Shown: positions 3,404-59,295 of the stretch, one piece after another
Layout: each line of letters starts with the position of its first letter
Numbering within the stretch: the first letter of the stretch is position 1
Assembly (NCBI GenBank): GCA_029260495.1
Contig: JAJDDD010000006.1
Span: forward strand, 186,001 to 250,000
Direction of reading: 5' to 3'
DNA length: 64,000 nucleotides
Origin: Phycisphaerales bacterium
GTDB taxonomy: Bacteria > Planctomycetota > Phycisphaerae > Phycisphaerales > UBA1924
The notes under the pieces: generated by a model
Seen by the model: the letters and a program-made list of their open reading frames with translations, nothing else
The model's database searches: none
Told to the model about the DNA's origin: nothing
Program-made: the position numbers and the translations under genes

Positions 3404-5938
3404 ATGAAGATGTGGAAGACAGCGGCGTTGGCGTTCAGTGCATATGGCCTGTTGAGCCTGGCGGCGGCATTGGAGGTGTCTGCCGGGGGTGATCCACGGG
3501 GCGCCCTTCCTGAGATTGACACGTCATTTCCCGCGACGGCGGATGAATGGCGGGCGCGCTATCCGGAGTTGCCACTCGATGACGGGCTCTTTGCGAGCCC
3601 CGATTTTGACGGCGACGGCGTGGGGGATCTGATTTTTCAAACGGTCGGGTTTGATCTTGATGCGCCGCGCGTGGGGCAGGTGGACGTGCTTTCGGGGTGG
3701 CTGGCGGATGAAATATTCTCATGCGGCGGAGAGGCGGCGAACGATTTGTTCGGCATCGTTGCTGTGAGTGTCGGCGATATCAATGGTGACGGCGTTCAAG
3801 ATCTGGCGATCAGCGCGCCGGCGAGCGGTGCAGCTGTTGAAGAGGGGGGTCGGGTTTACATTCATTCAGGCGATGACGGGACATTGATCTGGCGCATCAC
3901 CGGGCAGGTTCCTTTCGGCGGGTTTGGGTGGTCCATTGCGCCGCTTGGCGACATTAATGGCGACAACATCGATGACTTCGCGGTCGGCGCGCCCTTTGGC
4001 GGGGCGACTGGAAGAGTGAATATTTTTCATGGCGAGCCGGCTGTTCAGGGACTGGTTGAGAAGTCTCAGTTTGATGCGCAGCTGACCCTCTTCGGCGAGG
4101 GCGCCCTTGATCTGTTTGGATTCTCGGTGGCGAAAGCCGGTGATTTCAACGGCGACAGCGTCGAGGACATCATCGTCGGCGCTCCGTTGCATGATCGAAC
4201 CGCGGGTGAGGATCCGAACAACGGGGCGGCGTATGTGTATTCGGGACAGGATGGCTCGCTGCTGGCGGAGATCAAGACGGACGCTGTTCGCCGGGGGCTT
4301 GGGTTTGCGGTGGGGGGCGTCGGCGATGTGAACGGCGACGGCTTTGCGGATGTCGGCGCGGCGTCGCCGGGCGAGATTTTGGTGAATGAGCAGACGGCGG
4401 AGGTGATGGATGACAGCCATGTGCTGGTCTTTGGCGGGAGCGCTGGTGCGGGTCCGGGGTCGCCGGCGCTGCTTGAGAGTGATGCGGTGTCGACGCTGAA
4501 CGCTGCGGATGACGCTGAGTTTTTGTTTGGAGCGGTGATTGAAGGGGCCAATGATGTGACGGGTGATGGCGTGAACGAGGCGCTGGTGGATTCGAGCGTG
4601 ATTGTGACAGACCCTGTGGATGGGTCGCTGCGATATGAAATACAAACTTATATTTATGGCGGAGACGGATCGCTGGTGACGAGTTTTCGATCAGATGAGG
4701 ATGTGCCGGAGTTTCCGATGGGGCCAGAGCCGATTCAGCAGGCGCTGCCGTTCACTGGCGATGTTGATGGGGATGGCGTCGTCGGTGCGGATGATTTGAA
4801 GCTGGTGACAGAGAACATTGGGCGTGCTGGCGCCTTGCTCGTTGATGGCGATGTGTCGGGGGATGGTGTGGTTGATCTTGTTGATTTGAAAGTTGTGATG
4901 CGCGCGTATGGGCTGGAGGGCGCTGCGCGGTTGCGGGGTGATTTTGATGGAAACAGCATTATCAATGTGCGCGATCTGCGCGTGCTATTGAAGTCTGTGC
5001 AGGATGGTTTGCCTTATCGGGGTGTGTTTGATCTTGATGGGGACGGCGACGTTGATGTCGATGACGCCGCCGCGATGATGGAGGCGAGCGGGGGTTTGAT
5101 CCCGACGGATGAGCTCTGTGATGAGCTTGATCTTCACGATTTGTCAAATGATCTGGATGAGTGCCGGGGCGGGGGGCTTGGCGATGGTCGCTTGCCGCCT
5201 GTGGCGCCGGACCCGCGGCCGAGGCCTGGGCCCGATTGTGATGAGCTGCCGCGGGAGAATGCGGGTGATTGCACCTTGTGGGCGCTGTGCGTGACGGAGC
5301 CGCTGGCCGAGGAGCTGCGCGAGCTTGAGGATGAGCTGGAAGAGTTGGAGATGGAAGAAGAGGAGTTGTTCAGGCAGCTCTTTCAGCTGCTGACAAATTT
5401 GATCGCGTTGCAGAAGGATCGGGATGACCTTTATCAGAATATTCTTGCTCGGTTGAATAATGACGAGAAGACAGATTTGCGGCGGAATAACCAAAATGTT
5501 GGAATGGGAGCAATGATTGGTGGTGGCACGGGCGTATTAGCCGCTCTTGGTGGATTGAAGGCCGTTGCTAAGAAACCGTCACTGTGGGTAGTTGGCGCCG
5601 GAGCTTTCGCAGGCGGAGCTATCGGAGTTGCTTTTGAGGGCTGGATGGACGATCGGGCGATTCGAGCGCATTACGCCCAACGTCGCTCAGATTACCATTT
5701 AGCGTTCAACGGCATTAATCCATTTGTAGGAGGATTGCCCGAAGGTCTTTTGGCGGCTGGTCAGGCAGTGGTTGCAGCGGCAATGGCTGTGCGGGAAGCG
5801 GAGGACGCTTTGAGAGATTTACAAGATGAAATTGATATGCTTCAAGCGGAGATCGAAGCGAAGAAGTTGGAGATTGATCAAGCTCTCGACGACGCGATTG
5901 ATGCATGTCTGGCGCAGTTGCCTGGAGCGACTCCGTGA
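3404..5938 (+). CDS. Large secreted FG-GAP/dockerin protein with coiled-coil and Gly-rich hairpin tip
   Basis: The protein has 844 residues with a good RBS (AAGGAG) and a signal peptide (residues 1-28, ending VSAGG). Residues of about 60-420 hold FG-GAP units with Ca-binding DxNGDGxxD motifs, a beta-propeller as in integrins. Residues of about 446-560 hold four dockerin-like EF-hand repeats (DVDGDGVVGADDL, DVSGDGVVDLVDL, DFDGNSIINVRDL, DLDGDGDVDVDDA). A Pro-rich linker leads to a Glu/Leu coiled coil (about 635-685), a Gly-rich hydrophobic hairpin (about 703-745) and a second coiled coil (about 796-836) ending LPGATP. The tail therefore differs from the GC-type dockerin ends elsewhere in the window. 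The product is exported and may be membrane-active or surface-bound. Its stop overlaps the GTG start of the next gene. The 3' two-thirds recurs in truncated form downstream. Confidence 0.8.
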   Translation: MKMWKTAALAFSAYGLLSLAAALEVSAGGDPRGALPEIDTSFPATADEWRARYPELPLDDGLFASPDFDGDGVGDLIFQTVGFDLDAPRVGQVDVLSGWLADEIFSCGGEAANDLFGIVAVSVGDINGDGVQDLAISAPASGAAVEEGGRVYIHSGDDGTLIWRITGQVPFGGFGWSIAPLGDINGDNIDDFAVGAPFGGATGRVNIFHGEPAVQGLVEKSQFDAQLTLFGEGALDLFGFSVAKAGDFNGDSVEDIIVGAPLHDRTAGEDPNNGAAYVYSGQDGSLLAEIKTDAVRRGLGFAVGGVGDVNGDGFADVGAASPGEILVNEQTAEVMDDSHVLVFGGSAGAGPGSPALLESDAVSTLNAADDAEFLFGAVIEGANDVTGDGVNEALVDSSVIVTDPVDGSLRYEIQTYIYGGDGSLVTSFRSDEDVPEFPMGPEPIQQALPFTGDVDGDGVVGADDLKLVTENIGRAGALLVDGDVSGDGVVDLVDLKVVMRAYGLEGAARLRGDFDGNSIINVRDLRVLLKSVQDGLPYRGVFDLDGDGDVDVDDAAAMMEASGGLIPTDELCDELDLHDLSNDLDECRGGGLGDGRLPPVAPDPRPRPGPDCDELPRENAGDCTLWALCVTEPLAEELRELEDELEELEMEEEELFRQLFQLLTNLIALQKDRDDLYQNILARLNNDEKTDLRRNNQNVGMGAMIGGGTGVLAALGGLKAVAKKPSLWVVGAGAFAGGAIGVAFEGWMDDRAIRAHYAQRRSDYHLAFNGINPFVGGLPEGLLAAGQAVVAAAMAVREAEDALRDLQDEIDMLQAEIEAKKLEIDQALDDAIDACLAQLPGATP
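4335..4731 (+). repeat. Direct repeat, copy A (FG-GAP segment)
   Basis: This 397-bp segment of the intact gene aligns without gaps to 6406-6802. It contains 83 consecutive identical bases (4487-4569 = 6558-6640) and a second identical run of about 38 bases near the 3' end. It is long enough to serve as a homologous recombination substrate. Confidence 0.85.
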
Positions 5939-6402
5939 ACGAGCGCGAGTTTGAATATTACGATCCGAATGACCCTCGTTTCATAAGCGCTAAACGAGAG
6001 CGATTACGAAATAGGATTACACATATTTTCATTGTTGGTTTAGCATTTGGTTATTTTATTATACGATTTATCTCGATTGAAGTACATTTTCCGGCACTAT
6101 TGATATATTATTTATTATTTGCAATACCTTTTTTTATAATAGCAGGAATATATTATTTGCGCTATGCTCGCTTTTCGCATAATTTTACTGATAAAGAAGT
6201 TGTTTGTCGCAAGTGCGATTATCCGCTATGTGATCTCAAGCATGCTGACATCTGTCCTGAATGCGGTGCCGATTTGACGCAACATTCGGCGATTTCATTA
6301 ACACAACACATGGGTGCTGGTGCACAATTAATGATGGCGTCTGGTGCGTGGGTGGTGGCAATTGGCTGTGCTTGGAAGGCTTGGTCGTTATTGTTTCCAT
6401 AA
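5935..6402 (+). CDS. Small two-helix membrane protein with C-terminal zinc ribbon (copy A partner)
   Basis: The protein has 155 residues. GTG at 5935 is chosen because it overlaps the upstream TGA (GTGA), has GGAG exactly 7 nt upstream, and the same arrangement occurs at 8000 and 8691; an ATG at 5905 would overlap by 34 bp. The N-terminus is charged (SAKRERLRNR). Two hydrophobic helices follow, then a zinc ribbon VCRKCDYPL...ICPECGADL, then a last hydrophobic stretch. Such zinc-ribbon membrane proteins are common in planctomycetes and lack an assigned role. Translational coupling suggests it works with the upstream protein, perhaps as membrane partner, chaperone or immunity factor; this is inference. 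The helix-coding part is strikingly AT-rich: 6061-6120 has 15 G+C of 60. Confidence 0.72.
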   Translation: MNEREFEYYDPNDPRFISAKRERLRNRITHIFIVGLAFGYFIIRFISIEVHFPALLIYYLLFAIPFFIIAGIYYLRYARFSHNFTDKEVVCRKCDYPLCDLKHADICPECGADLTQHSAISLTQHMGAGAQLMMASGAWVVAIGCAWKAWSLLFP

Positions 6403-8003
6403 CTAGCGACGGGTTCGCTGATGTTGGGGCGGCGTCGCCGGGCGAGGTGCTGGTGAATGAGCAGACGGCGGAGGTGACGGAGGACAGCCATGTGCTGGTG
6501 TTTGGCGGGAGCGCAGTGGCGGGTCCGGGGTCGCCGGCGCTCTTGGAGACGGATGCTGTGTCGACGCTGAACGCTGCGGATGACGCTGAGTTTTTGTTTG
6601 GAGCGGTGATTGAAGGGGCCAATGATGTGACGGGTGATGGGATGGATGAGGCGCTGGTGGATTCGAGTGTGATTGTGACGGACCCGGCGGATGGGTCGCT
6701 GCGCTATGAGATACAAACTTATATTTATGGCGGTGATGGTGCGTTGGTGGGGAGTTTTCGTTCGGATGAGGATGTGCCGGAGTTTCCGATGGGGCCAGAG
6801 CCCATTAATCAGCCTGTTGCACTTGCTGCAGATATTGATGGCGACGGAGATGTTGATGACATTGATCTGCGGATTGTGGCGGAGAACATTGGGAAGCTGA
6901 ACGCGCAGTTTTTACAGGGGGATTTGAATCGCGACGGCGTGGTTGACAGGGATGATCTGCGCATTGCGATGTCAACGTACGGCGAGCGCAGCGGCGCCGT
7001 GCGAAAGAAGGGGGATTTGAACGCGGACGGGGTTGTGAACAAGTGGGATTTACGATTGCTGGCGCTGGGGATAGCGAAGGGTGAGTATTTCATTGGAAAT
7101 ACGGGGAATCCGGGTGCGGATGTTGATGGCGACGGCGATGTTGATGTAAACGATGCGGCTGCGATGATGCAGGCGAGTGGCGGTTTGATTCCTGCGGATG
7201 AGTTGTGTGATGAGCTGTCGCTGTTGGGATTGTCGAATGATTTGGATGAGTGTCGAAGTGGGGGAGGGGTGTTGGGCGACGGTCCGCTGGAGCCTGATCC
7301 ACGGCCTGTGCCGGGGCCGGATTGTGATGAGTTGCCGACGGAGAATTTGGCGGATTGTGCGCGGTGGGTGAACTGTGTGGTGGATGCGCTTCAGGAGGAA
7401 CTCGAGGAGCTGGAGGAAGAGCTTGAAGAGTTGGAGATGGAGAAGGAGGAACTGGAGGAGGAGATTGCGCAGTTGCAGGCGGCTCTAATCGCGCTGCAGA
7501 AGGTTGCGGATAAGCAGTTGCAGGGCGCGATTGCACGGGCTACTCAGTCTCGTGACAATCTGCTTCGTAGGAATAGAAATCAGAGTTTGACTGCTGCTGG
7601 GGTTACCGGCGGTGTGGGTGCAGCCGGCGCTATAGTAGTATCTGGTCCACTGGCCTATGTTATCGCCGCCGCCGGAGCCGGTGCAGCAATTGGGTCCTTG
7701 TTGCAGGGGTGGTTGGATGAAAGGAACATTAACGCTGATCATCAGCAACGGATTGCGAACTATCTTCTTGCGTGGTCGGGGATGGATCCGTTTGTACCAT
7801 TGCCTGATGGTCTGTTGGCTGCTGGTCAGGCTGTGGCCGTGGCGGCGATGGTATTACAGGAAAAAAAGGATGCGCTGGTCGAGCTTCAAGCCGCGATCGA
7901 TGAACTTGAGGAAGCAATTGAGGCGTTGGAAGAAGAAATTGAGCAAACAGTTGAGCAAGCATTTGATGAATGCATGGCGCAGCTGCCTGGAGCGACTCCG
8001 TGA
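6403..8003 (+). pseudogene. 5'-truncated second copy of the FG-GAP/dockerin/coiled-coil gene (silent cassette B)
   Basis: Homology to the gene at 3404 starts 4 nt after the stop at 6402, in the middle of an FG-GAP motif (SDGFADVGAASPGE), and runs to the common end LPGATP at 8003. It keeps FG-GAP units, the dockerin-like EF-hands (DIDGDGDVDDIDL onward), the first coiled coil, a different Gly/Ala-rich hydrophobic hairpin and the second coiled coil. It has no signal peptide, start region or RBS. The open frame extends back to 6261 only as an out-of-frame shadow of the preceding gene. The body has no internal stop, so it is either recently truncated or kept as a donor cassette. The tip domain has diverged from copy A while the upstream 397 bp stayed close. 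Confidence 0.75.
6406..6802 (+). repeat. Direct repeat, copy B (FG-GAP segment)
   Basis: Ungapped partner of 4335-4731, including the 83-bp identity at 6558-6640. A third, shorter copy lies at about 9171-9297. Confidence 0.85.
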
Positions 8004-8458
8004 GCAAAGGCGAGTTGCAATATTATGACGCAAACGACCCTCGTATTGTAAGCGCCAAACAGGAACGATTGCGGAATAGAATCGTACTTGCTCTTTGGAT
8101 GGTCCTGAGCATCGGATGGTTTGTCGCAGACTTTGTGTCAATCAAAACACGGATTCCAGAGATAGAAGTATTTTATTTAATGCTTATAGCCGTTATATAT
8201 GCAGCATCAGGCATATATATGCTTTGTTTTGTTCGTTATGTTCGCGATGTCACCCGTGAAGGGATCGTGTGTCGAAAGTGCGATTATCCAGTGTCAGATG
8301 TTAAAAACGCCGGCATCTGTCCAGAATGCGGAGCTGATCTGACAGCGCGATCGGCTTTCTCATTGACACAACGCCCGGCCGCGCATAAGCGATTGTTGTC
8401 GGCATGCTTCGTGTGGCTATTGTCTGCGATGTTCTTTTATATTGTGTTTACGAATTGA
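8000..8458 (+). CDS. Small membrane zinc-ribbon protein (copy B partner)
   Basis: The protein has 152 residues from GTG at 8000, overlapping the TGA of cassette B (GTGA), with GGAG 7 nt upstream. It is paralogous to 5935-6402: it shares the charged start (SAKQERLRNR), two transmembrane helices, the ribbon VCRKCDYPVSD...ICPECGADL and a final hydrophobic stretch. The helices have diverged much more than the ends. With cassette B lacking a start, it is unclear whether it is translated in place; its own RBS would allow it if a transcript reads through. Confidence 0.62.
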   Translation: MSKGELQYYDANDPRIVSAKQERLRNRIVLALWMVLSIGWFVADFVSIKTRIPEIEVFYLMLIAVIYAASGIYMLCFVRYVRDVTREGIVCRKCDYPVSDVKNAGICPECGADLTARSAFSLTQRPAAHKRLLSACFVWLLSAMFFYIVFTN

Positions 8459-8694
8459 ACGGCGGTGGATTTGGTGATGTCGCCGTGGCGTTTCCTGCTG
8501 GCTATTTGGAAGCACGTCAGGCTGTGGCCGCGGCGGCGTTGGTTGTGTAGCAGGGGAAGGCAGATCTTGCGTTATTGCGAATGATCATTGCTGACCTTGA
8601 AGCCGACATAGAGGCGCTCGAGATTGAGCTCGAAGAGGCTCTCGTAGAGGCTTTGGATGCGTGTTTGGACGAGCTGTCCGGAGTAAATCCGTGA
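8458..8694 (+). pseudogene. Internally deleted cassette C: FG-GAP motif joined to coiled-coil tail
   Basis: Directly after the stop at 8456-8458 the frame reads NGGGFGDVAVA, an FG-GAP-like motif. It then jumps to the C-terminal tail (AGYLEARQAVAAAALVV), a TAG stop at 8548-8550, and in the same frame the second coiled coil to LSGVNP at 8694. Alignment to copies A and B shows that the rest of the propeller, dockerin, first coiled coil and hairpin are missing. The 3' end still has GGAG-N7-GTGA for the next gene. It is a dead remnant of the same kind of cassette. Confidence 0.7.
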
Positions 8695-9158
8695 TGTCGA
8701 TGCACTTCAGCGAGGTTATGGATGTTCGCATTATCAGCGCTGAACGTGAGCGGCTGAGGAACATAATCGCGTTTGTCATTTTCATCGGTTTATTTGTTGG
8801 GTGGCTCATTGCTGCGTCTTTGACGCGAGTGTTCGATGCCATTGAGATTATACAAATCTATTCTGCAGCTATTGTTCCAGTTTACATATTGCTCGGTGTA
8901 TATTTTATTCATTATTATCGCTTGTTTTATTTTAGCTTTGTGCGACAATGCTTGAAGGAGGAAATTGTATGCAGAAAATGTGATTATCCAGTCTTGGACA
9001 TTAAGACCGCAGCTATTTGTTCAGAATGCGGCGCCGACCTTACGCGACGCAATGCATTTTCATTAGCGCAGCCTCCATATCCGGGGCGGCGATACTTTGG
9101 TGCGTTTGCTGCTTGGGTTATTGCCGCATTGATGTTGTTTGGTGTGGTCGCATCATGA
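8691..9158 (+). CDS. Small membrane zinc-ribbon protein (copy C partner)
   Basis: The protein has 155 residues from GTG at 8691, overlapping the TGA of remnant C; ATG at 8694 is equally possible. It is the third paralogue: SAERERLRN start, two helices (IAFVIFIGLFVGWLIAA and a second around VPVYILLGVYFI), ribbon VCRKCDYPVLD...ICSECGADL and a terminal hydrophobic segment. Its 5' partner is broken, so it is an orphan that has kept an intact frame. AT-rich helices are seen as in the other two copies. Confidence 0.62.
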   Translation: MMSMHFSEVMDVRIISAERERLRNIIAFVIFIGLFVGWLIAASLTRVFDAIEIIQIYSAAIVPVYILLGVYFIHYYRLFYFSFVRQCLKEEIVCRKCDYPVLDIKTAAICSECGADLTRRNAFSLAQPPYPGRRYFGAFAAWVIAALMLFGVVAS

Positions 9159-9162
9159 AATA

Positions 9163-9308
9163 TTGCCGCTGGCGATGTGAACGGTGACGGGTTTGGAGAT
9201 GTTGGAGCGGCGTCGCCGGGCGAGGTTTTGGTGAATGAGCAGACGGCGGAGGTGACGGACGACAGCCATGTGCTGGTGTTTGGCGGGAGCGCAGCGGTCC
9301 TTGTTTAG
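9163..9308 (+). pseudogene. Cassette D: short FG-GAP fragment
   Basis: Starting 4 nt after the stop at 9158, the sequence reads GDVNGDGFGDVGAASPGE and on to VLVFGGSA, then loses homology at about 9297 and meets a TAG at 9306-9308. It matches 4322-4448 of the intact gene and the start of cassette B, with long identical stretches. No start, RBS or downstream partner gene remains. Confidence 0.75.
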
Positions 9309-9397: not shown

Positions 9398-12300
9398 TCA
9401 TGGGAATACACTTGGGCACGGGCCCCAGGCGCCGAGCAGCTGAGCCAGGTCGCCTGAACCGACATCGCCATCGCCATCAAAGTCCGCTTCGCAGGGCAGG
9501 TTGCCCATGCAACCCGGATTGCCCCAGGAGCCGGCCAGGAACGCAAGGTCTCCAGCGCCGACAGCGCCATCGCCGTTGAGATCCCACGGGCATGGCAAGG
9601 TTTCCACTTCCTTGAGCTTGATGTTGTCGACGTACCACTTGGAGGAGATTTCTGGTGCTGGTAGCGGCGGGATGACTTCGTAGCATGCGAGCAGGATGCT
9701 CTCCGCGGGGAGATTGGGAAAGTTGTACGCGAATCCATCGGCTATACCGTCAGCATTGGATATGCCGCCGACGGGTGGCGGGCCGGGCTCTTCATTGTCC
9801 GGGAAGCCAACGAGCGTCAACAGGCCCGTTGAGGCGCCCGGGTTCGTCGGCGAGTTGTCAACGAAGATGAAGTCGTCGTTCGGCGGGCAATCAGCGAAGG
9901 ACAGAACGTCTCTCGAGCCTCCAACGCCATCGGTGACGCCAGCCTGGAACTTGACGGCGATCACGTCAGGACCTTTGATGATGCGGTCAAACGCATCGAA
10001 AGCGCCCGTCACTTCATCAACACCGCGGATCATCGGCCCTGTGGCGCCCTGATCAGGAAAGCCGATGCGGTAGAAGCAGAAGTTGTTGGGACTGGCTGGA
10101 GTGGGGCTTGGCGCATCCAATGCCAAGGCGCGGATGGTGAGCGGTTCAAGTTCCGCGACGCCGTCGCCTTCTTCATTGAATGCCTGCTCAACTTGCCAGC
10201 CATTGATGTCGGCGATGTTGAAGCCGGCGCCATCCTGATCCTGGGACGTGCCCGTGGCGATCAGAACTGCGTCGGGATGAGCGCCCATCAGGGTGTCGTC
10301 AAAGTTCTCAGGAATATCGCCGGGGCCGCCGGGAGTGCCAAGTGTATTCATGCCGGCCTTCCAGTTTCCATCTGAGTCGACTTCGACGCAGACGCGGAAC
10401 CAGGCGTTGAGCGGAACGATAACACCCGTGCCCTGGAAGATAAACGGCGGGGGCGGCGGGAAGCCACCCATAACGGGGTTGTCAATCGCGACAGCGATCT
10501 CGTTGGCGGTATGGGTATCGAAAGAGCTGGGAGGTCCGCCGAAGCGGATGTTGATGATCGTGCCGCCATCGCCATCTGTGCCGGCGCCGTTGATGCGGAA
10601 GCTGAGGGCAGAGTTGTTGTCCTGAACATAGAGATCCCAGTAGACACAGGCATTAACGGAGCCACCCATGGGACCTTGACCGTCTGCAAGCGCGATTGCG
10701 TTCGGCCATGTTGAAATGGCAGAGTTGAAGAGACAACAAGTCTCAACGTTCTGGTTCGCGTTGTTCACGAAGCAAACAACCTGCCCGAAGGCGCCGCCCG
10801 GATCAATGAAGACATCCGAACCCATCGCTTCAGTCAGCACATCGTCGGTCGTCGCTGAGCCGGAACGAATCCAGCCGTCACCACCAACGCCGCCGGCAGC
10901 GGCGAAGTTTGCGCCGGGGTCAGCCCACATCGGGAGGGGGCGAGTATCGATGCCATAGCCTTTGACATCGGTCGCAGCGAATGGCGCCGCAATGCCTACA
11001 GTGTCCCCCGCGATATTCATCGCGGTGTTCTGAATATCCCACTCGCCCTCAGCGATGGGGCAGCCGGTCTTGGGATCGTTGAGTGTGAAGCGTGTCGGAA
11101 ACGGCGGCACGCTTGGGCAGGGCGTGAAGCCTTCAACCGCATCTTCAGCGAAGACAGCGTCCACAGCGACAACAGCGCCGATGACAAGTTCGGCGGGGAG
11201 TGTGAACAGCGCGCCGCCCATGGACGGATCAGGAAGAGCAGCGATCGTTGCAATCTGATAACGGCAGAAGAGCTCGGCGCCATCATTGCGCTGGAACTGC
11301 ATCGTGTAGTCAGCACATTGCGGAGTGGCTGTATTCGGGCACGTCGGGTTGAGTGTGAAGTTCATGAAGCAGGGGTTGAGCTCCGTTGTCAGCTCATCCA
11401 TGTCATCGGGATCGACCAGGATCAGGTCGGCGGCGCCGGCGCACTTGACGCGATCCGGGCAGGCAAAGGCCGCCTTGTTGGTTGGCTTTTTGACATAGAC
11501 AAGATCATCGGTCATCAGGCGCCAATCGTTGGGATTGGGCAGACCCTTGCGGTCGGCGCCAACGAAGACTTCGCACGCCGTGTAGACGCACCATTCAAGC
11601 GCAAAGCCGAAATCCTTGATCTCGGTCTGGATGAACAGGGCAGCGGTCTCCGTGCCGGCGAGTGTGTCGCCGCCAACGCTGTCGCCCGTGAGGGCCCACG
11701 TGCCGATGTCAGTCAAAGCCTTGGCTGTGCACAGTTCAAAGCCCACACTCACAGGACAGCTCGCCAGCTTCTCCTTGAGAAGAGCAACGACTGTGCCTGG
11801 ACTGCCGATGGCGCCGCCGCCGGCGCTGATGGTGTAGGTGCAGTACAGGGCGCCGGGATCCATGTCCAGACCAGCGGCATCAAGCTTGAAGGAGCTGATG
11901 GCTGCATTGGTCGATACAGGCGGACAGTCAACGACGCGAATAGAGCGCTGGCTCACCTCGAAGTCGTTGCCATCAACGCTGTCAGCAAAGACGAAGGGTG
12001 TGTCACCCTGCTGGGCGATCGGCTGATCGAGAACGTAGCACTCCATGTCGTCGCACATGGGCAACTCAAAGACCGGGCCCGGCCCGGGGGTGAAGCCCTT
12101 GCCATCGACGCAGAAGTCATCAATAAGGATGGCGTCCCCGAAGCCGCCGAAGTTGTTGCCCGACTGGAATCCCGCTTGATTAAGCGTAAATTGCTCACTC
12201 AGGAATCTCGTGTAGGGCGGAGACATCGGGCTGGGCTGGCCCGCAAGCGTCTTCGCTTCCTGGAATTCAGGTTCAAAGCCATTTGCCGAAAGGAACGTCG

Positions 12301-14392
12301 AGTCGAACTCGAGGGGTATGTCATTCACGCTCCACTCAGCTGTTCCGTCACCGAAGAGTGTGAGTTTTAATGTAAAGAACGCGCCGATGAGGCCGGCGCC
12401 GGTCAGGTTGGTGGTTGTCGGATAGTTGAGGTTGCTCGTGTTGTCCGCAAGATTCGGCGGCGAATCAACACGGACACCGGATGTTGTGTGCATCGTGGGG
12501 TCAAAGGCGCTATTCGCAAGGCGGATGTGGAGGGTGTCGTCAATGATGTCGAAGTTGTCAGCGACGCCCGTGAGCAACTGCTCAGACACGCCGAGAATGA
12601 ATGTGTCGCTGACGCTCATGCCGCGAACAGTCGTTGGGGAGTCAACCAGGATGTTGACGCTGACAGTCACCGGACACTCGGGGGTTGCGACGGGATGATT
12701 GTCAGCGGGGGGAGGGGAGACGCCGTTGCGCTGATCGTGGGGCGTGTTGATGGAGAACTCAGTGCGGAAACGGGAGTCTTCGATTTGGTTGTTTTGCTGA
12801 ATCGACTGGTTCGGCATGCCGTCGCCATCAGAGCCAGGAGGTAGCGTGGTGTTGCCAGCCGTCGAGATGACTCCGCGACCGGAAAGCGAGTCTGTCCAGG
12901 TGACACCTTGAAGAATAAGCCCCTGACCAGGTGTGTAGAGTTCGATGTCGTCCTTAAAGGGGAGAATCTGCTTCGGCTCAGCACTCCTGGTGAACACGTC
13001 ACCGATGAGGCAGAAGTTGTCCGTGTAGTTGTTGGTGGGAACCCAGCCGGGAACCTGCTCAGGCGTGGGATCACCGCCGATGAGGGTGAAGACGTTGGTA
13101 CAAGTCGTGCCCAGGATGGGAGGAGACGGATCCTTTGCTTCAACCATGAAATTATTCACCGCGCGGCCATGGCCAGCAAAGACGCCGCCGCCGAGATCCG
13201 TCGCAGCCTGGCCCGGATAGATTTCCGTCCAGCCGAGTTCGAAGAACTGGAAGTCACGCTGATCGTCAATCGTAATCCCGGCAGAGCCATCGGTTTGGCT
13301 GTCGCGCATGTAGACGGCAAGCGTTGACGGCGTCACGCGCACCGCGACGGTGAACCACTCCTGAAGCTGAACGTGTTTTGTCGCGAGCCCAGGCGCGGGG
13401 CCGATCGGCGGAGCAAAGAACTGTCCGATGCTGTAAAGACCCGGGTTGTTCCCGGTGATCAGTGGCCTGAGCATCTGCCCATTGGGCTCCGCGAGCGGTG
13501 AGCCGAAGAAGTAACCCGTCAGCACAACGCGAGCCACAAGACCACCTTCAAGACTGGACTGCGGCGACCACGGCACTGCTGTCTCGTAGTCATCAAAGTA
13601 AAAATCGGCGCACACAATCATCGCCTGCGAAGTGTTCGCGACATATACCTCGGCGGAACTCAGGTTGTAGCCAAGAAACGTGCCCGTGAGCGCCGAGCCG
13701 AACCAACCCTGACCATTGAGTAGCACCTGGTTCCGAGTGGGATCAACATCTCCGCCGGGAGGAACCGCGCCGTTGTAGGGATCGCGAGGCTCCTCCAGTA
13801 TCTGCGGCACATTGAGCGGATTATCCCAGTCAACAGCGACGTAGAAAAATGCCGCGTTGACACCGATGCCGGAGGGCTGGGTTTGGTTGTCGATTTCTTC
13901 CCACACGCCATCGGAAGGGTCCGGATCGACGATGTACGACTCGAACCCGTCGAAGTAATCGATCTCCGCGCCGGCGATGTCGTCATTCACTCCGCGCGCT
14001 GCGCCCGCGTTGAGTGAGGATTGATCCGAGCGACGAAGAGCGACATCGCTCTGCTGCAACGTCTTGTAGCCAAGTTGCTCGGGACCAAGAAGGCACTGCC
14101 AAGGATGAATCTGTCCCGCGTCAATCATCGCGCGAACTCTGTTGACCTCTGCATCGAAAGCCGGCGTGCCGAGGCGCGGCATTCCAAGACCTTCCTCACG
14201 CGCTTTCAATAGGTGGGCCGGATCGTTCACGGCGCGATACGCTGACGTGCGGATCGGAACCTGATGCGCCGGGTTGGGCGCGATCAACTCAAGCGCCGCT
14301 GACGGTGATATTTTGCTGACGCTGACGTTCTCCGCCACCGCGGCGCCGACCAGCGCCAATCCGACGGCTCCGACCAATGTGCTGCTCTTCAT
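9398..14392 (-). CDS. Giant secreted multidomain protein with GC-type dockerin tail
   Basis: The protein has 1664 residues and starts MKSSTLVGAVGLALVGAAVAEN, a clean signal peptide. It then holds several modules of about 250-300 residues that begin with related motifs (IDYFDGFESYIVD, DDIELYTPGQG, CDDMECYVLDQPI). These look like repeated beta-sandwich (lectin/LamG-like) domains with many paired Cys. The last 65 residues are a dockerin with two EF-hands (CPWDLNGDGAVGAGDL and DFDGDGDVGSGDL) ending WGPCPSVFP; four residues past the usual Cys-Pro end is unusual. No catalytic motif was recognised, so a binding or structural role at the cell surface is likely. It is divergent from the peptidase gene at 14764, with 371 bp between them. 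Confidence 0.75.
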   Translation of the reverse strand: MKSSTLVGAVGLALVGAAVAENVSVSKISPSAALELIAPNPAHQVPIRTSAYRAVNDPAHLLKAREEGLGMPRLGTPAFDAEVNRVRAMIDAGQIHPWQCLLGPEQLGYKTLQQSDVALRRSDQSSLNAGAARGVNDDIAGAEIDYFDGFESYIVDPDPSDGVWEEIDNQTQPSGIGVNAAFFYVAVDWDNPLNVPQILEEPRDPYNGAVPPGGDVDPTRNQVLLNGQGWFGSALTGTFLGYNLSSAEVYVANTSQAMIVCADFYFDDYETAVPWSPQSSLEGGLVARVVLTGYFFGSPLAEPNGQMLRPLITGNNPGLYSIGQFFAPPIGPAPGLATKHVQLQEWFTVAVRVTPSTLAVYMRDSQTDGSAGITIDDQRDFQFFELGWTEIYPGQAATDLGGGVFAGHGRAVNNFMVEAKDPSPPILGTTCTNVFTLIGGDPTPEQVPGWVPTNNYTDNFCLIGDVFTRSAEPKQILPFKDDIELYTPGQGLILQGVTWTDSLSGRGVISTAGNTTLPPGSDGDGMPNQSIQQNNQIEDSRFRTEFSINTPHDQRNGVSPPPADNHPVATPECPVTVSVNILVDSPTTVRGMSVSDTFILGVSEQLLTGVADNFDIIDDTLHIRLANSAFDPTMHTTSGVRVDSPPNLADNTSNLNYPTTTNLTGAGLIGAFFTLKLTLFGDGTAEWSVNDIPLEFDSTFLSANGFEPEFQEAKTLAGQPSPMSPPYTRFLSEQFTLNQAGFQSGNNFGGFGDAILIDDFCVDGKGFTPGPGPVFELPMCDDMECYVLDQPIAQQGDTPFVFADSVDGNDFEVSQRSIRVVDCPPVSTNAAISSFKLDAAGLDMDPGALYCTYTISAGGGAIGSPGTVVALLKEKLASCPVSVGFELCTAKALTDIGTWALTGDSVGGDTLAGTETAALFIQTEIKDFGFALEWCVYTACEVFVGADRKGLPNPNDWRLMTDDLVYVKKPTNKAAFACPDRVKCAGAADLILVDPDDMDELTTELNPCFMNFTLNPTCPNTATPQCADYTMQFQRNDGAELFCRYQIATIAALPDPSMGGALFTLPAELVIGAVVAVDAVFAEDAVEGFTPCPSVPPFPTRFTLNDPKTGCPIAEGEWDIQNTAMNIAGDTVGIAAPFAATDVKGYGIDTRPLPMWADPGANFAAAGGVGGDGWIRSGSATTDDVLTEAMGSDVFIDPGGAFGQVVCFVNNANQNVETCCLFNSAISTWPNAIALADGQGPMGGSVNACVYWDLYVQDNNSALSFRINGAGTDGDGGTIINIRFGGPPSSFDTHTANEIAVAIDNPVMGGFPPPPPFIFQGTGVIVPLNAWFRVCVEVDSDGNWKAGMNTLGTPGGPGDIPENFDDTLMGAHPDAVLIATGTSQDQDGAGFNIADINGWQVEQAFNEEGDGVAELEPLTIRALALDAPSPTPASPNNFCFYRIGFPDQGATGPMIRGVDEVTGAFDAFDRIIKGPDVIAVKFQAGVTDGVGGSRDVLSFADCPPNDDFIFVDNSPTNPGASTGLLTLVGFPDNEEPGPPPVGGISNADGIADGFAYNFPNLPAESILLACYEVIPPLPAPEISSKWYVDNIKLKEVETLPCPWDLNGDGAVGAGDLAFLAGSWGNPGCMGNLPCEADFDGDGDVGSGDLAQLLGAWGPCPSVFP

Positions 14393-47349: not shown

Positions 47350-48839
47350 AACGCCAGTATCTATTCTATCCCGGGATCGCTTTACTCACGCTTGCAGCAG
47401 TTCAACCCGCTGCAGGTCAAACCGATACGCTCTCCACCGACGCCGATATCACCCTGACCGGCGAGATTGCCGGCGATCAGTTCGGCCGTTGGGTCGCGCT
47501 GCTCGACGATGTCGATATGGATGGTTTCGCCGACATCGCTGTGGGTTCACGAGGCAACGCGCTCTCTGGCTTAAACCAGGGCCGCGTGCAGGTCTTCTCG
47601 GGACAAACGCAAGCGCTGCTGTACACGCTTGACGGCGAGTCACCCAGCGACAACTTCAGTGAAGAGCTCGCAGACGCCGGCGATGTCGACAACGACGGTT
47701 GCTCCGATCTCATCGTCGGCGCCTGGGCAAGCAGCGCCGGGGGAACAGCCGCCGGCCGGGCCTATGTCTACTCCGGACGCACCGGAACTCTCCTGAAAAT
47801 GTTCACCGGCGAAGCCGCCAACGACAATCTCGGCGACACTGTCGGCGCCGCCGGCGATGTGAACAACGACGGCTGGGATGACGTACTCATCGGTGCTCCA
47901 ACCCACGACGGCGTCGCGCTCCGAACAGGCATTGTCTACGTGTACTCCGGGAAAGACTGGTCCCTCATTCGCACCCACGAAGGCGCCAATGAAAACGATC
48001 GGGTTGGCATCTCCGCCACCAGCGCCGGCGACATTAACGGCGACGGCTGCGATGACATCATCGTCGGCTCTCATCTCTTTGATCTCATCGGCCCGGGCGA
48101 CGATCGCGGTCGCGTCTGGGTGTACTCAGGCAAGGACGGCTCCGTCCTGCACACCTTCACCGGTGAATCGTCAGGCGACAACTTCGGCTGGTCTGCAGAA
48201 AACGCAGGTGATGTTAACAATGACGGCGTGCCCGACATCATCGTCGGCGCCTTGCTTAACGACGTCGCCGGATCAAACGCCGGTCGTGCCTATGTCTATT
48301 CCGGCGCCAACGGCGCACTCCTCTATACCTTCACCGGCGAAGGCCCCATCGAACGATTCGGCATCTCTGTCTCCACCGCCGGCGACGCCAACCATGACGG
48401 GCACGATGACGTCCTGATCGGCGCCTGGTTCGCCGTCGCGGATGGCGACCCAGGGCAAAACTTCGGCCGCGCCTACATCTACTCAGGCGCCGACGGCCAA
48501 CTTCTCCAGACTTTCACCGGCGCTGAGATCGATGAGCACTTGGGCCGACCAATTTCCGGCGGCAAAGACGTCAACAATGACGGCTCACCCGATGTCGCCG
48601 CCGGCGCTCGCGACAACGACACCGGAGGCGTCGACACCGGCCAGGCGTATGTCTTCTTTCTCGCGCCCCCGCCCTGCCTTGGAGATCTGAACGGCGACGG
48701 CAACGTCGGAAGCGCCGACAGCGCCATCATGCTCGGCTCATGGAACAATCCCGGCGGATCAGCCGACCTCAACGGCGACGGCTTCGTCGGCAGCGCCGAT
48801 TTCGCATTGCTCCTCGGCGCATGGGGCGCCTGCCCATGA
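47340..48839 (+). CDS. Secreted seven-unit FG-GAP protein with GC-type dockerin
   Basis: The protein has 499 residues from ATG 47340 (MLLKRQYLFYPGIALLTLAA, a clean signal peptide). This start lies 10 nt inside the previous gene, in its last Pro-Cys-Ser codons; the longer frame from 47253 is a shadow. Seven units carry GDxNNDGxxDxIVGA and GRAYVYSGxxGxLLxTFTGE, a seven-bladed integrin-like propeller. The tail has CLGDLNGDGNVGSADSA and DLNGDGFVGSADFA, ending LLGAWGACP. It is part of the five-gene dockerin run. Confidence 0.8.
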   Translation: MLLKRQYLFYPGIALLTLAAVQPAAGQTDTLSTDADITLTGEIAGDQFGRWVALLDDVDMDGFADIAVGSRGNALSGLNQGRVQVFSGQTQALLYTLDGESPSDNFSEELADAGDVDNDGCSDLIVGAWASSAGGTAAGRAYVYSGRTGTLLKMFTGEAANDNLGDTVGAAGDVNNDGWDDVLIGAPTHDGVALRTGIVYVYSGKDWSLIRTHEGANENDRVGISATSAGDINGDGCDDIIVGSHLFDLIGPGDDRGRVWVYSGKDGSVLHTFTGESSGDNFGWSAENAGDVNNDGVPDIIVGALLNDVAGSNAGRAYVYSGANGALLYTFTGEGPIERFGISVSTAGDANHDGHDDVLIGAWFAVADGDPGQNFGRAYIYSGADGQLLQTFTGAEIDEHLGRPISGGKDVNNDGSPDVAAGARDNDTGGVDTGQAYVFFLAPPPCLGDLNGDGNVGSADSAIMLGSWNNPGGSADLNGDGFVGSADFALLLGAWGACP

Positions 48840-57531: not shown

Positions 57532-59295
57532 ATGAAGAAGCACACGCTCACTTCCGCTGCTGTTCTTATTGTTGTGGCGGGGTCGACGCAGGCCCTCGGA
57601 GCCGGCCCCTTCCCCGCTGTGTTCGAGCTTTCGGGCCTCAACGGCGCCAACGGATTTGTTATCACCGGCATCGATTTAGGCGACTACAGCGGCTCTTGTG
57701 TCTCCGCCGCCGGCGATGTGAATGGCGACGGCGTCGACGACATCATCATCAGCGCGATCCGCGCCGCTCCGAACGGCCTTAATTCGGGCGAAAGCTACGT
57801 AGTCTTCGGCGGCGCAAGCGTTGGCGCGAACGGTTCAATCGAGCTCTCTTCTCTCAACGGCGCGAATGGCTTCGTCCTCAACGGCGTCGATGCAGATGAC
57901 TTCAGCGGCGTTTCCATCTCCGCCGCCGGCGATATCAACGGCGACGGCGTCGACGACATCATCATCGGGGCCAGCAATGCGGATCCGAATGGCGCCTCGA
58001 ACAGCGGCGAGAGCTATGTGGTCTTCGGCGGCGCCAACGTGGGCGCGAGTGGGATCATCGAGCTCTCCTCTCTGGACGGGACCAACGGCTTCGTTTTCAA
58101 CGGTGCAAACGCTCGCGACTACAGCGGCCGTTCCGTCGCCGCTGCCGGCGACGTCAACGGCGACGGCGTTGACGACGTCATCATCGGGGCCTTGCGCGCC
58201 GATCCGAACGGCGATTGGTCAGGCGAGAGCTATGTGGTCTTCGGTGGTGTTGGCATTGGTGCAGACGGCGTCATCGAGTTCTCCTCCCTGAACGTAACCA
58301 CTGGCTTCGTCCTTAACGGCGTCGGTGGATTCGACTACAGCGGCGATTCCGTCTCCGCCGCCGGCGATGTCAACGGCGATGGCGTCGACGACCTCATCAT
58401 CGGAGCCAGCGGTGCCGATCCGAACGGCAATCGTTCAGGCGAGAGCTATGTGGTCTTTGGTGGCGCCAGTGTGGGCGCGGGCGGCGCCATCGAACTCTCG
58501 TCGCTCAACGGGACCAACGGCTTCGTCCTCTACGGCATTGATGCAGACGACCAAAGCGGCGGTACTGTCTCCGCTGCCGGCGATGTCAACGGCGACGGTG
58601 TTGACGACATCATCATCGGAGCACACCTCGCAGACCGGAACGGCTCCTTCCAACGTGGCCAGAGCTATGTGGTCTTCGGCGGTGCAAGTGTGATTGCAGG
58701 CGGGACCATTCAGCTCTTGTCCCTGAACGGAATCAACGGCTTCGTCATCAACGGCATTGATGCAAACGATCGCATCGGCCGTTCCGTCTCTGCCGCCGGC
58801 GATGTAAACGGCGACGGTGTCGACGACATCATCATCGGGGCCTACGCCGCGGATCCGAACGGCATCTTCAGTGGCGAGAGCTATGTGATCTTCGGCGGCG
58901 CAGGCGTGGGCGCGAGCGGCTCCATTGAGCTCTCCGCCCTGAATGGAACTAACGGATTCGTCCTCAACGGCGCTAATGCGCGCGACTACAGCGGCATTTC
59001 CGTCTCCGCCGCCGGTGATGTAAACGGCGACGGCGTTGACGACGTCATCATCGGGGCCAACGGCGCCGATCCGAACGGTCTTAGTTCAGGCGAGAGCTAT
59101 GTCGTTTTCGGCAGGCAGTCCGATCTTACAGATCTAAATTGTGACGACGTTGTGAACGCCATTGATTACGCGATTTTGCTGGGAAGTTGGGGTCCGTGCC
59201 CGCCGGCTCCAAACGCATGCGCTGCAGATCTCGATGGCGATGGTATTGTAGGATCAGGCGACCTGGCGCTACTCCTTGGTTCGTGGGGTTCTTGA
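57532..59295 (+). CDS. Secreted seven-repeat FG-GAP protein with GC-type dockerin
   Basis: The protein has 587 residues with GAGGAG 5 nt upstream and a signal peptide ending QALGAG. Seven near-identical units of about 72 residues read ELSSLNGTNGFVLNG...SVSAAGDVNGDGVDDIIIGA...GESYVVFGG, one Ca-binding FG-GAP motif each. Repeats are alike at DNA level too. The tail is divergent: LTDLNCDDVVNAIDYA, then CAADLDGDGIVGSGDLA and LLGSWGS, lacking the final Cys. The gene interrupts the kynurenine cluster between kmo and kynB. Confidence 0.82.
   Translation: MKKHTLTSAAVLIVVAGSTQALGAGPFPAVFELSGLNGANGFVITGIDLGDYSGSCVSAAGDVNGDGVDDIIISAIRAAPNGLNSGESYVVFGGASVGANGSIELSSLNGANGFVLNGVDADDFSGVSISAAGDINGDGVDDIIIGASNADPNGASNSGESYVVFGGANVGASGIIELSSLDGTNGFVFNGANARDYSGRSVAAAGDVNGDGVDDVIIGALRADPNGDWSGESYVVFGGVGIGADGVIEFSSLNVTTGFVLNGVGGFDYSGDSVSAAGDVNGDGVDDLIIGASGADPNGNRSGESYVVFGGASVGAGGAIELSSLNGTNGFVLYGIDADDQSGGTVSAAGDVNGDGVDDIIIGAHLADRNGSFQRGQSYVVFGGASVIAGGTIQLLSLNGINGFVINGIDANDRIGRSVSAAGDVNGDGVDDIIIGAYAADPNGIFSGESYVIFGGAGVGASGSIELSALNGTNGFVLNGANARDYSGISVSAAGDVNGDGVDDVIIGANGADPNGLSSGESYVVFGRQSDLTDLNCDDVVNAIDYAILLGSWGPCPPAPNACAADLDGDGIVGSGDLALLLGSWGS
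57623..59115 (+). repeat. Seven tandem DNA repeats of about 210 bp
   Basis: Each unit encodes one FG-GAP blade of the gene at 57532, and the segment around GDVNGDGVDDIIIGA is nearly unchanged between units. Such repeats can expand or shrink by recombination. Confidence 0.75.

What the first reader, a model, noticed from the sequence alone, without database searches (positions are those of the whole stretch)
3404..9308. Expressed surface-protein gene followed by an array of promoterless tip-plus-partner cassettes
One intact gene pair (3404-6402) is followed by three truncated copies. Two of them start in a GDGFADVGAASPGE-like FG-GAP motif 4 nt after the preceding stop (6403, 9163); the third starts at its preceding stop in a similar motif (8458). 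Cassettes B and C end with the same coiled-coil end and a coupled small membrane gene. Copy B keeps a 397-bp ungapped match to copy A, with 83 identical bases, while the tip region beyond it has diverged. This is the layout expected of a locus that swaps its C-terminal tip and partner gene by homologous recombination, as in rhs or antigenic-variation loci. I know of no such system described for Phycisphaerae. Simple tandem duplication with decay is the plain alternative.
Basis: partly seen in the sequence, partly recalled or inferred. Interest (0 to 1): 0.78.

Follow-up and report, generated by a model that had tools for sequence, protein, structure and literature searches.

The report
Spare tip cassettes behind surface gene
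A planctomycete bacterium carries one complete surface-type protein gene followed by spare, headless copies of its far end, each of the larger ones paired with a small membrane-protein gene, a layout like that of bacterial toxin genes that can swap their tips.

Summary
One full gene (A, 3404-5938) and its coupled partner (5935-6402) are followed by an intact headless cassette B with partner, a collapsed cassette C with intact partner, and a remnant D. All start at the same FG-GAP motif. A/B divergence is mosaic: 408 bp of FG-GAP is young (dS 0.33); what follows is synonymously saturated yet under purifying selection. Neutral drift of B is rejected by simulation, so 'duplication with decay' fails for B but fits C and D. 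In G029 (another genus) one head and two copies of the FG-GAP unit were found, on contigs that break there. The same genome holds a genuine Rhs toxin locus (FG-GAP head, RHS core, Imm33) followed by a headless orphan cassette. A/B block divergence lies within that of 8 Rhs core pairs from this family. Best reading: a displaced-cassette, polymorphic-effector-like locus on a non-Rhs scaffold, able to swap tip and partner by recombination in the FG-GAP block. Exchange is not shown: the genus has one genome. Unlike most Rhs pairs, the tips are related (57% identical), and they match no known toxin. Toxin/immunity function is a guess from a hydrophobic hairpin tip and a membrane partner. 'Expressed' is unproven.

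The parts
3404..5938 (+). Gene A, 844 aa: signal-peptide-like N-terminus, FG-GAP repeats, dockerin/EF-hand-like repeats, neck with Cys, coiled coil, hydrophobic stretch read as a hairpin, coiled coil
   Evidence: ORF; FG-GAP PF01839 E 5.9e-22, dockerin below cut-off in A; helical tip model; AGGAG 7 nt before ATG. Signal peptide judged by eye.
3404..4321 (+). Head, present once in the array; other genome matches are distant (36-42% identical)
4334..4741 (+). FG-GAP block of A shared with B (whole), D (first 110 nt) and C (first codons): proposed recombination block
   Evidence: 408 nt, 43 differences to B; pS 0.268; D
4742..5935 (+). Dockerin-like region, neck and tip of A (synonymously saturated against B)
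5935..6402 (+). Partner A: 155 aa, two membrane helices, zinc ribbon (CRKC..CPEC), a third helix in the model; GTG overlaps stop of A; GGAG 7 nt upstream
   Evidence: third helix not flagged by hydropathy in partner A, flagged in B and C
6405..8003 (+). Cassette B: headless FG-GAP block (6405-6812), dockerin-like region, tip; 532 codons open; no signal peptide
   Evidence: dockerin PF00404 35.2 bits; neutral decay rejected
8000..8458 (+). Partner B, 152 aa, coupled by GTGA, GGAG 7 nt upstream
8458..8694 (+). Cassette C: FG-GAP motif fused to coiled-coil end; one in-frame TAG
8691..9158 (+). Partner C, 155 aa, open, four zinc-ribbon Cys kept, GGAG 7 nt upstream of GTG
9159..9308 (+). Cassette D: FG-GAP remnant (similar from 9171 to 9292), ends in TAG

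Best explanation
The locus is a head-plus-cassettes array of the kind known from Rhs and CDI toxins, built on a different scaffold. One protein with an export-type start (signal peptide, FG-GAP repeats, dockerin-like repeats) carries a C-terminal tip made of coiled coil, hydrophobic hairpin, coiled coil. Behind it lie headless cassettes; the larger ones hold a stretch of the FG-GAP block, a tip or its end, and a small membrane partner gene. Shown: the layout, the single head, the young FG-GAP block against old tips, purifying selection on tip B over most of its divergence, and one head with two FG-GAP copies in a second genus. Inferred: homologous recombination in the FG-GAP block can join the head to another tip and its partner at once; C and D are worn-out displaced cassettes, with C's partner kept; the tip acts on membranes of other cells or is a variable surface part, and the partner protects or accommodates it in the producing cell.
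For: 1) All three extra units start at the same FG-GAP motif just after a partner stop. 2) dS 0.33 in the FG-GAP block; pS 0.58-0.75 in every later segment. A single duplication without later exchange would give one age. 3) dN/dS 0.11 in the EF-hand/neck part, 0.16 in the coiled-coil end. With B neutral and A frozen, at branch lengths that match the observed pS of the whole tip, 0 of 200 runs were stop-free and 0 of 200 had pN as low as observed. Over the FG block's own age 0 of 1000 neutral runs of B were stop-free. 4) The same partner start signal in all three cassettes (GGAG, 7 nt, GTG). 5) G029, another genus: one head at E up to 1e-12, two FG-GAP copies, one of them opening its contig at the same motif and followed by a tip and a membrane partner. 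6) Same-genome Rhs locus with a headless orphan cassette; GC falls core .59/.62, tip .52/.50, immunity .43 there.59 block.50-.64 tip parts.40 partner in A, and .60.50.44 in G029. 7) Core pS of 8 Rhs pairs from 4 loci.09-.63; the A/B block at .27 lies inside.
Against: No exchange seen: one genome in the genus, no reads. Tips are related; in the Rhs controls only 1 of 8 pairs were. No toxin or immunity family matches tip or partner (Pfam; NCBIfam for A and the partners; PADLOC hits fall on the coiled coils). The partner's zinc-ribbon/membrane type is common: weak matches in 117 of 162 other family genomes. B has an internal GTG 6492 with GGAGG 8 nt upstream, so it could be translated without a head. 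The G029 cassette has a stop and a frameshift between FG block and tip, so it decays, as do C and D. The tip of the head-bearing G029 copy is not visible (contig end), its genome is 93% complete, so a second head may be missing, and contig breaks can have other causes. The partner stop test over the FG age is weak (79 and 88 of 1000 stop-free).
Confidence: 0.52

Rival explanations
1. Tandem duplication of the gene's 3' part followed by functional divergence. B and the three partners are translated from one operon as separate, headless proteins; the FG-GAP block is merely kept alike by gene conversion.
For: B is open for 532 codons and constrained; an internal GTG with GGAGG lies at 6492; partners all have start signals; terminator-like sites in the region do not exceed chance (6 against 7.1 in shuffles, one of them inside C at 8521); tips are related, as duplicates are.
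Against: B has no signal peptide, yet keeps the FG-GAP block and the Cys-bearing neck; C kept its partner but lost most of its tip; one head with more than one FG-GAP/core copy is also seen in G029 and in the Rhs locus of the same genome.
Confidence: 0.32
2. Plain tandem duplication with decay: B, C and D are pseudogenes of growing age.
For: C has a stop and a large loss; D is a stub; the G029 cassette has a stop and a frameshift.
Against: Neutral B would carry about 7 stops over the age of the FG block and 11-13 over the age of the tip; 0 of 1000 and 0 of 200 runs were stop-free. Partners B and C are open, with pN lower than in all or all but 1 of 200 neutral runs at matching pS. Ages of block and tip differ.
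Confidence: 0.1
3. Assembly artefact: a collapsed or chimaeric join of several gene copies.
For: The assembly is in 22 contigs and repeats are trouble spots; contigs of relatives break in the same kind of gene.
Against: Copies differ by about 10% to saturation; coupled starts are intact in all three cassettes; the contig is 314,658 bases long and runs on for over 100 kb on either side of the array.
Confidence: 0.05

Closest known systems
Rhs loci with displaced (orphan) C-terminal tips (Jackson et al. 2009, PMC2935791; Koskiniemi et al. 2014, PMC3967940; passages seen)
   Same: One full gene, then headless core fragments with tip and partner gene; fragments usually without start signals; GC-poor region downstream; a shared block long enough to recombine (522 bp at 95% in Salmonella LT2 as reported there, 408 bp at 89% here).
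   Different: No RHS repeats or Rhs core found in A or B; tips here are related to each other; no toxin domain recognised; no recombinant seen.
Rhs locus on contig C14 of the same genome (L162)
   Same: FG-GAP head similar to A's, dockerin-like repeats, single head, headless second cassette, GC falling from core to partner.
   Different: Has RHS repeats and Rhs core; tips unrelated to each other (HNH-like; GH-E nuclease); Imm33 partner.
Polymorphic toxin systems with toxin-then-immunity cassettes (Zhang et al. 2012, PMC3482391; passages seen)
   Same: Gene order tip then partner, so that one recombination event in the constant part brings both; retained partners behind lost tips; a two-helix pore-forming tip is listed (Tox-WTIP).
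   Different: 'FG-GAP' does not occur in the 300,000 characters held; the Tox-WTIP motif is not seen in these tips by eye; activity untested.
Rhs pore-forming toxin Tse5 of Pseudomonas (PMC10684867; passages seen)
   Same: A C-terminal membrane-acting tip with a cognate immunity gene is an established kind.
   Different: No sequence comparison with Tse5 was made; A has no Rhs core.
Effector displacement leaving immunity-gene arrays in Vibrio (Kirchberger et al. 2017, PMC5361080; abstract and outline seen)
   Same: Partner kept after its effector is lost, as in cassette C.
   Different: That system is type VI secretion; none was looked for here.

Membership tests
Rhs toxin family | RHS/YD repeats and Rhs-associated core (TIGR03696) | tested here: not met
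   A: none in Pfam or NCBIfam. B: none among the 25 Pfam rows shown of 35. The genome's two TIGR03696 matches are both on contig C14.
Rhs toxin family | Headless core-plus-tip fragments downstream of a full gene | tested here: met
   as layout, with an FG-GAP block in place of the Rhs core; single head
Polymorphic toxin system (general) | Constant head with different C-terminal tips in related genes or strains | tested here: inconclusive
   A-like heads at 34-42% identity carry other tails in the family (Rhs-HNH, coiled coil-hairpin, unclassified), but no same-species comparison exists
Polymorphic toxin system (general) | Recognisable toxin domain in the tip | tested here: not met
   best fold matches of the tip model are alpha-pore-forming toxin chains at E 4.8e-3 and TM about 0.3, none at E 0.001 or better
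Polymorphic toxin system (general) | Small gene directly downstream of each tip | tested here: met
   GTGA overlap and GGAG in three of three cassettes; a related small gene behind the G029 tip; not visible for G020 (contig end)
Polymorphic toxin system (general) | Partner neutralises tip | not testable with these tools
   bench test needed
Antigenic variation by silent cassettes | Variant expressed copies generated from silent copies within a population | not testable with these tools
   no reads or strains; mosaic divergence allows it
Simple decaying tandem duplicate | Neutral drift of the downstream copies | tested here: not met
   not met for B and, more weakly, for partners B and C; C tip and D look decayed

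The most novel reading that the evidence does not exclude
A new class of polymorphic effector in the planctomycetes: an FG-GAP/dockerin-headed protein without RHS repeats whose exchangeable tip is a coiled-coil/hydrophobic-hairpin, alpha-pore-forming-like membrane effector, each tip travelling with its own zinc-ribbon membrane immunity protein, and with tips of one family diverging under selection inside a single array instead of being replaced by unrelated ones.
Probability: 0.3. Interest if true: 0.72.

Novelty: new variant of a known kind. Interest (0 to 1): 0.5.

Why it matters
If right, the displaced-cassette way of storing and swapping C-terminal tips is not tied to Rhs, CdiA or secretion-system proteins but also works on FG-GAP proteins, which are common in this bacterial family. 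It gives an uncharacterised tip/partner pair that can be tested directly, and an in-genome Rhs locus as a yardstick. It also gives a usable sign (young shared block, old selected tips, one head) for finding such arrays where no toxin domain is recognised.

Tried and rejected
Relatives of the tip: none by the search for related loci in genome contigs or viral contigs; with tip A alone, 1 of 162 other family genomes gave a hit, which reads as antisense chance (G139); 391 other phylum genomes gave 3 weak matches, which fall on the coiled-coil and middle part. Head homologues then led to two distant tips; a profile with them (A4) finds G020 and G029, which are in the profile and so match by construction, and one weak hit, G120. 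Apart from that hit, the tip family is seen in 3 of 163 genomes, own included. The FG-GAP block alone matches 5 other family genomes, all weakly.

Partner-like hits in the family were checked by eye for a tip-like neighbour: none seen, but 17 of the 29 loci are minus-strand matches that my script did not turn, so only 12 of 29 were read properly. The hairpin scan of head homologues missed the known positives L083 and L115, so its silence means little.

Rhs yardstick: 8 loci given; 4 (L179, L181, L182, L184) gave no pair because my motif found fewer than two cassettes, and were dropped; the 8 pairs come from the other 4 and are not independent. In two of these (L180, L183) no full-length gene lies in the stretch.

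Fold searches: tip matches are long-helix matches without significance; the partner has none better than E 2.4. Tails of other head proteins (L136, L149, L147) look toxin-like to my eye but gave no toxin family, so I do not count them. A partner-to-B frameshift fusion was dropped: partner and cassette frames stand in different relation at the three junctions.

Literature (open-licence PMC papers only): no paper with both 'Phycisphaerae' and 'FG-GAP'; two with 'FG-GAP' and 'polymorphic toxin', the one opened (PMC9218822, passages) having the second term only in a reference; two with Planctomycetota, Rhs and toxin, the one opened (PMC12057145, passages) mentioning Rhs in passing; one with Phycisphaerae and 'antigenic variation', listing only. 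Searches were seen as listings apart from the papers named above.
Full report
What is there. Between 3404 and 9308 lies one complete gene pair and three shortened copies. Gene A (844 aa) has a signal-peptide-like start (by eye), FG-GAP repeats (PF01839, E 5.9e-22), a weak dockerin match (E 0.0097, below the Pfam cut-off) and a C-terminal part without a family; the dockerin model is above cut-off in cassette B (35.2 bits against 22.9). The tip of A is predicted as long helices with a break in the middle (mean pLDDT 72.5, two sequences only). That middle is hydrophobic: two separate stretches in A, one longer stretch in B; I read it as a hairpin. The partner is predicted as two long helices, a zinc ribbon and a last helix (pLDDT 73.7, three sequences), with four Cys kept in all three partners; the last helix is hydrophobic enough to be flagged in partners B and C, not in A. 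In all three cassettes the partner starts with GTG overlapping the stop of the tip frame, with GGAG 7 nt upstream.

Cassette boundaries. B, C and D each begin at the same FG-GAP motif of A, right behind the stop of the preceding partner. B keeps everything from there to the tip end. C jumps from the motif to the coiled-coil end, has one in-frame TAG, but keeps an open partner. D is the FG-GAP start only. So there is one head, two whole tips, three partners and four FG-GAP starts.

Two ages. Codon comparison of A and B gives dS 0.33, dN 0.054 over 136 codons of the FG-GAP block, and pS 0.58-0.75 in every later segment (EF-hand/neck part: pS 0.636, pN 0.143). The step lies near 4742, at the FG-GAP/dockerin border. 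Synonymous differences of 27 in 101 sites against 185 in 277 give Fisher p 4e-12; against the EF-hand/neck segment alone, the best conserved of the later ones, p is 1.1e-5. Within the block an 83-nt identical run exceeds chance placement of the 43 differences (31 of 20,000; 509 of 20,000 on third positions). D is about equally far from A and B in this block (100, 101 and 98 of 110 identical for D-A, D-B, A-B). The block has therefore been exchanged or homogenised since the tips parted.

Selection. dN/dS is 0.11 in the EF-hand/neck part, 0.16 in the coiled-coil end, 0.29 over all. I simulated the case most generous to decay, A frozen and B neutral. At branch lengths that give about the observed pS (0.667) the 388 tip codons should show pN 0.40-0.48 and 11-13 stops; observed are 0.315 and none, and 0 of 200 runs matched either. 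At shorter branches (pS 0.45 and 0.56) 200 and 37 of 200 runs had pN as low as observed, but 0 of 200 were stop-free. Over the age of the FG block alone (0.165 per site) 0 of 1000 neutral runs of B stay open, over 0.05 per site 77 of 1000. Partners: pA/pB pS 0.688, pN 0.355; pA/pC 0.775, 0.414; pB/pC 0.836, 0.386; at the longer simulated branches, whose pS is nearest, 0 or 1 of 200 neutral runs had pN as low, while over the FG age their stop test is weak (79 and 88 of 1000 stop-free). So B was functional for most of its divergence, and probably the partners, although B has no export signal today. B may have become headless only lately, or may be translated from an internal GTG (6492, GGAGG 8 nt upstream).

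Relatives. The genus has one genome. The tip of A alone finds no true relative in 162 other family genomes. The head has matches in 50 of 163 family genomes, own included, at E up to 1e-12, many of them ordinary FG-GAP proteins. Two genomes matter. In G029 (another genus) a head on contig C15 shares A's distinctive N-terminus (E 4e-13) and the contig ends about 125 nt into the FG-GAP unit; contig C3 opens at that very motif (82% identical over 123 nt, so a different copy) and continues through an FG-GAP block, a stop, a dockerin-like part, a frameshift, a 315-codon open frame with neck Cys, coiled coil, hydrophobic stretch and coiled coil, and a small membrane gene. That gene aligns with partners A, B and C at 23 of 121, 36 of 118 and 24 of 118 identical residues and lacks the CxxC pairs. 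One head and two FG-GAP copies are found in G029; the genome is 93% complete, and the tip behind its head is not visible. In G020 a full gene (C12) ends with its contig inside a tip of the same build, and a second head (C89) ends with its contig in the dockerin part.

Yardstick from the same genome. Contig C14 carries a 3030-aa open frame with an FG-GAP head matching A's, RHS repeats, an Rhs core above cut-off (TIGR03696, 59.3 bits) and an HNH-like tip below Pfam's cut-offs; behind it an Imm33 gene (PF09951, 45.5 bits); behind that a headless core-plus-tip frame of 551 aa with a GH-E nuclease tip (PF14410, 65.8 bits), whose core matches the main core over 903 columns at 81%. The contig then ends in what reads like an ankyrin-repeat gene (by eye). 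GC falls from core (.59/.62) to tip (.52/.50) to immunity gene (.43). In A it is .59 in the block.50-.64 in tip parts and .40 in the partner; in G029 .60.50.44. Rhs cores occur in 108 of 163 family genomes, own included (102 over cut-off), and several contigs hold one long frame beside short ones, e.g. G001:C6 with four frames of 350-594 aa and one of 2410 (a capped list). In 8 core pairs from 4 loci pS runs from 0.09 to 0.63, and 1 of 8 tip pairs is related (41% over 138 aa). The A/B block (0.27) falls within the first range; its related tips are unusual by the second.

How it would work. Jackson et al. describe displaced rhs tips with core fragments, mostly without start sites, in a GC-poor region (PMC2935791, passages). 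Koskiniemi et al. report that in Salmonella LT2 a headless orphan is activated by fusion to the main gene, and propose recombination in 522 bp of 95% identity (PMC3967940, passages). Zhang et al. explain the tip-then-immunity order by one recombination event bringing both (PMC3482391, passages). The present locus has each part needed for that: a shared block, tip and coupled partner as a unit. Crossing over between the two FG-GAP blocks would delete tip A and its partner and put tip B behind the head; the reverse could come from a sister chromosome or an incoming fragment. This step is inferred.

What the tip does. No family match. The build (coiled coil, hydrophobic stretch with a Pro near its middle by eye, coiled coil, conserved Cys) recurs in A, B, G029 and G020. 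The best structural matches are alpha-pore-forming toxin chains, but at E 4.8e-3 and TM about 0.3 they are not evidence. A membrane-acting effector with a membrane immunity partner is my preferred guess (about 0.35); a variable surface or assembly module with a membrane partner is the alternative.

Verdict. The array is real and not just decay. It works like a displaced-cassette locus with fair probability (0.52; lowered from 0.55 on rechecking, because G029 shows two FG-GAP copies but only one visible tip). It is not an Rhs member (core and repeats absent), and its tip is not a proven toxin. New variant of a known kind.

Noticed in passing
G000:C14 (L162:2562-13913): Genuine Rhs polymorphic toxin locus in the same genome: FG-GAP-headed Rhs with HNH-like tip, Imm33 gene, then a headless orphan core with GH-E nuclease tip and the start of an ankyrin-like gene (by eye) at the contig end.
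   Followed up: yes
L179 (G001:C6), L180 (G026:C236), L181 (G008:C9), L183 (G067:C2): Three or more Rhs cores close together with short open frames in other genomes of the family, apparently displaced tips (three cassettes each read in L180 and L183).
   Followed up: partly
L146, L157, L159: Each locus repeats stretches of about 140-200 nt at 72-90% identity, by position probably dockerin ends of neighbouring FG-GAP/dockerin genes: shared end, different fronts, the reverse of the window array.
   Followed up: no
L083 and L112 (G020:C12 and C89): Two heads share 164 bp at 94.5% around the signal peptide, then diverge, and share 82 bp of the dockerin part at 84%: mosaic likeness in a second genus.
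   Followed up: partly
L149:362-5881 (-) and L147:3507-5281 (-): Two genomes of one genus (G103, G106) carry a similar unclassified tail behind A-like heads of different length, with different small open frames just downstream.
   Followed up: partly
9398-14392 (-): 1664-aa open frame with a weak C-terminal dockerin match, convergent with the array.
   Followed up: no
window about 47403-48608 and 57811-59175 (+): Further FG-GAP proteins in the same window.
   Followed up: no
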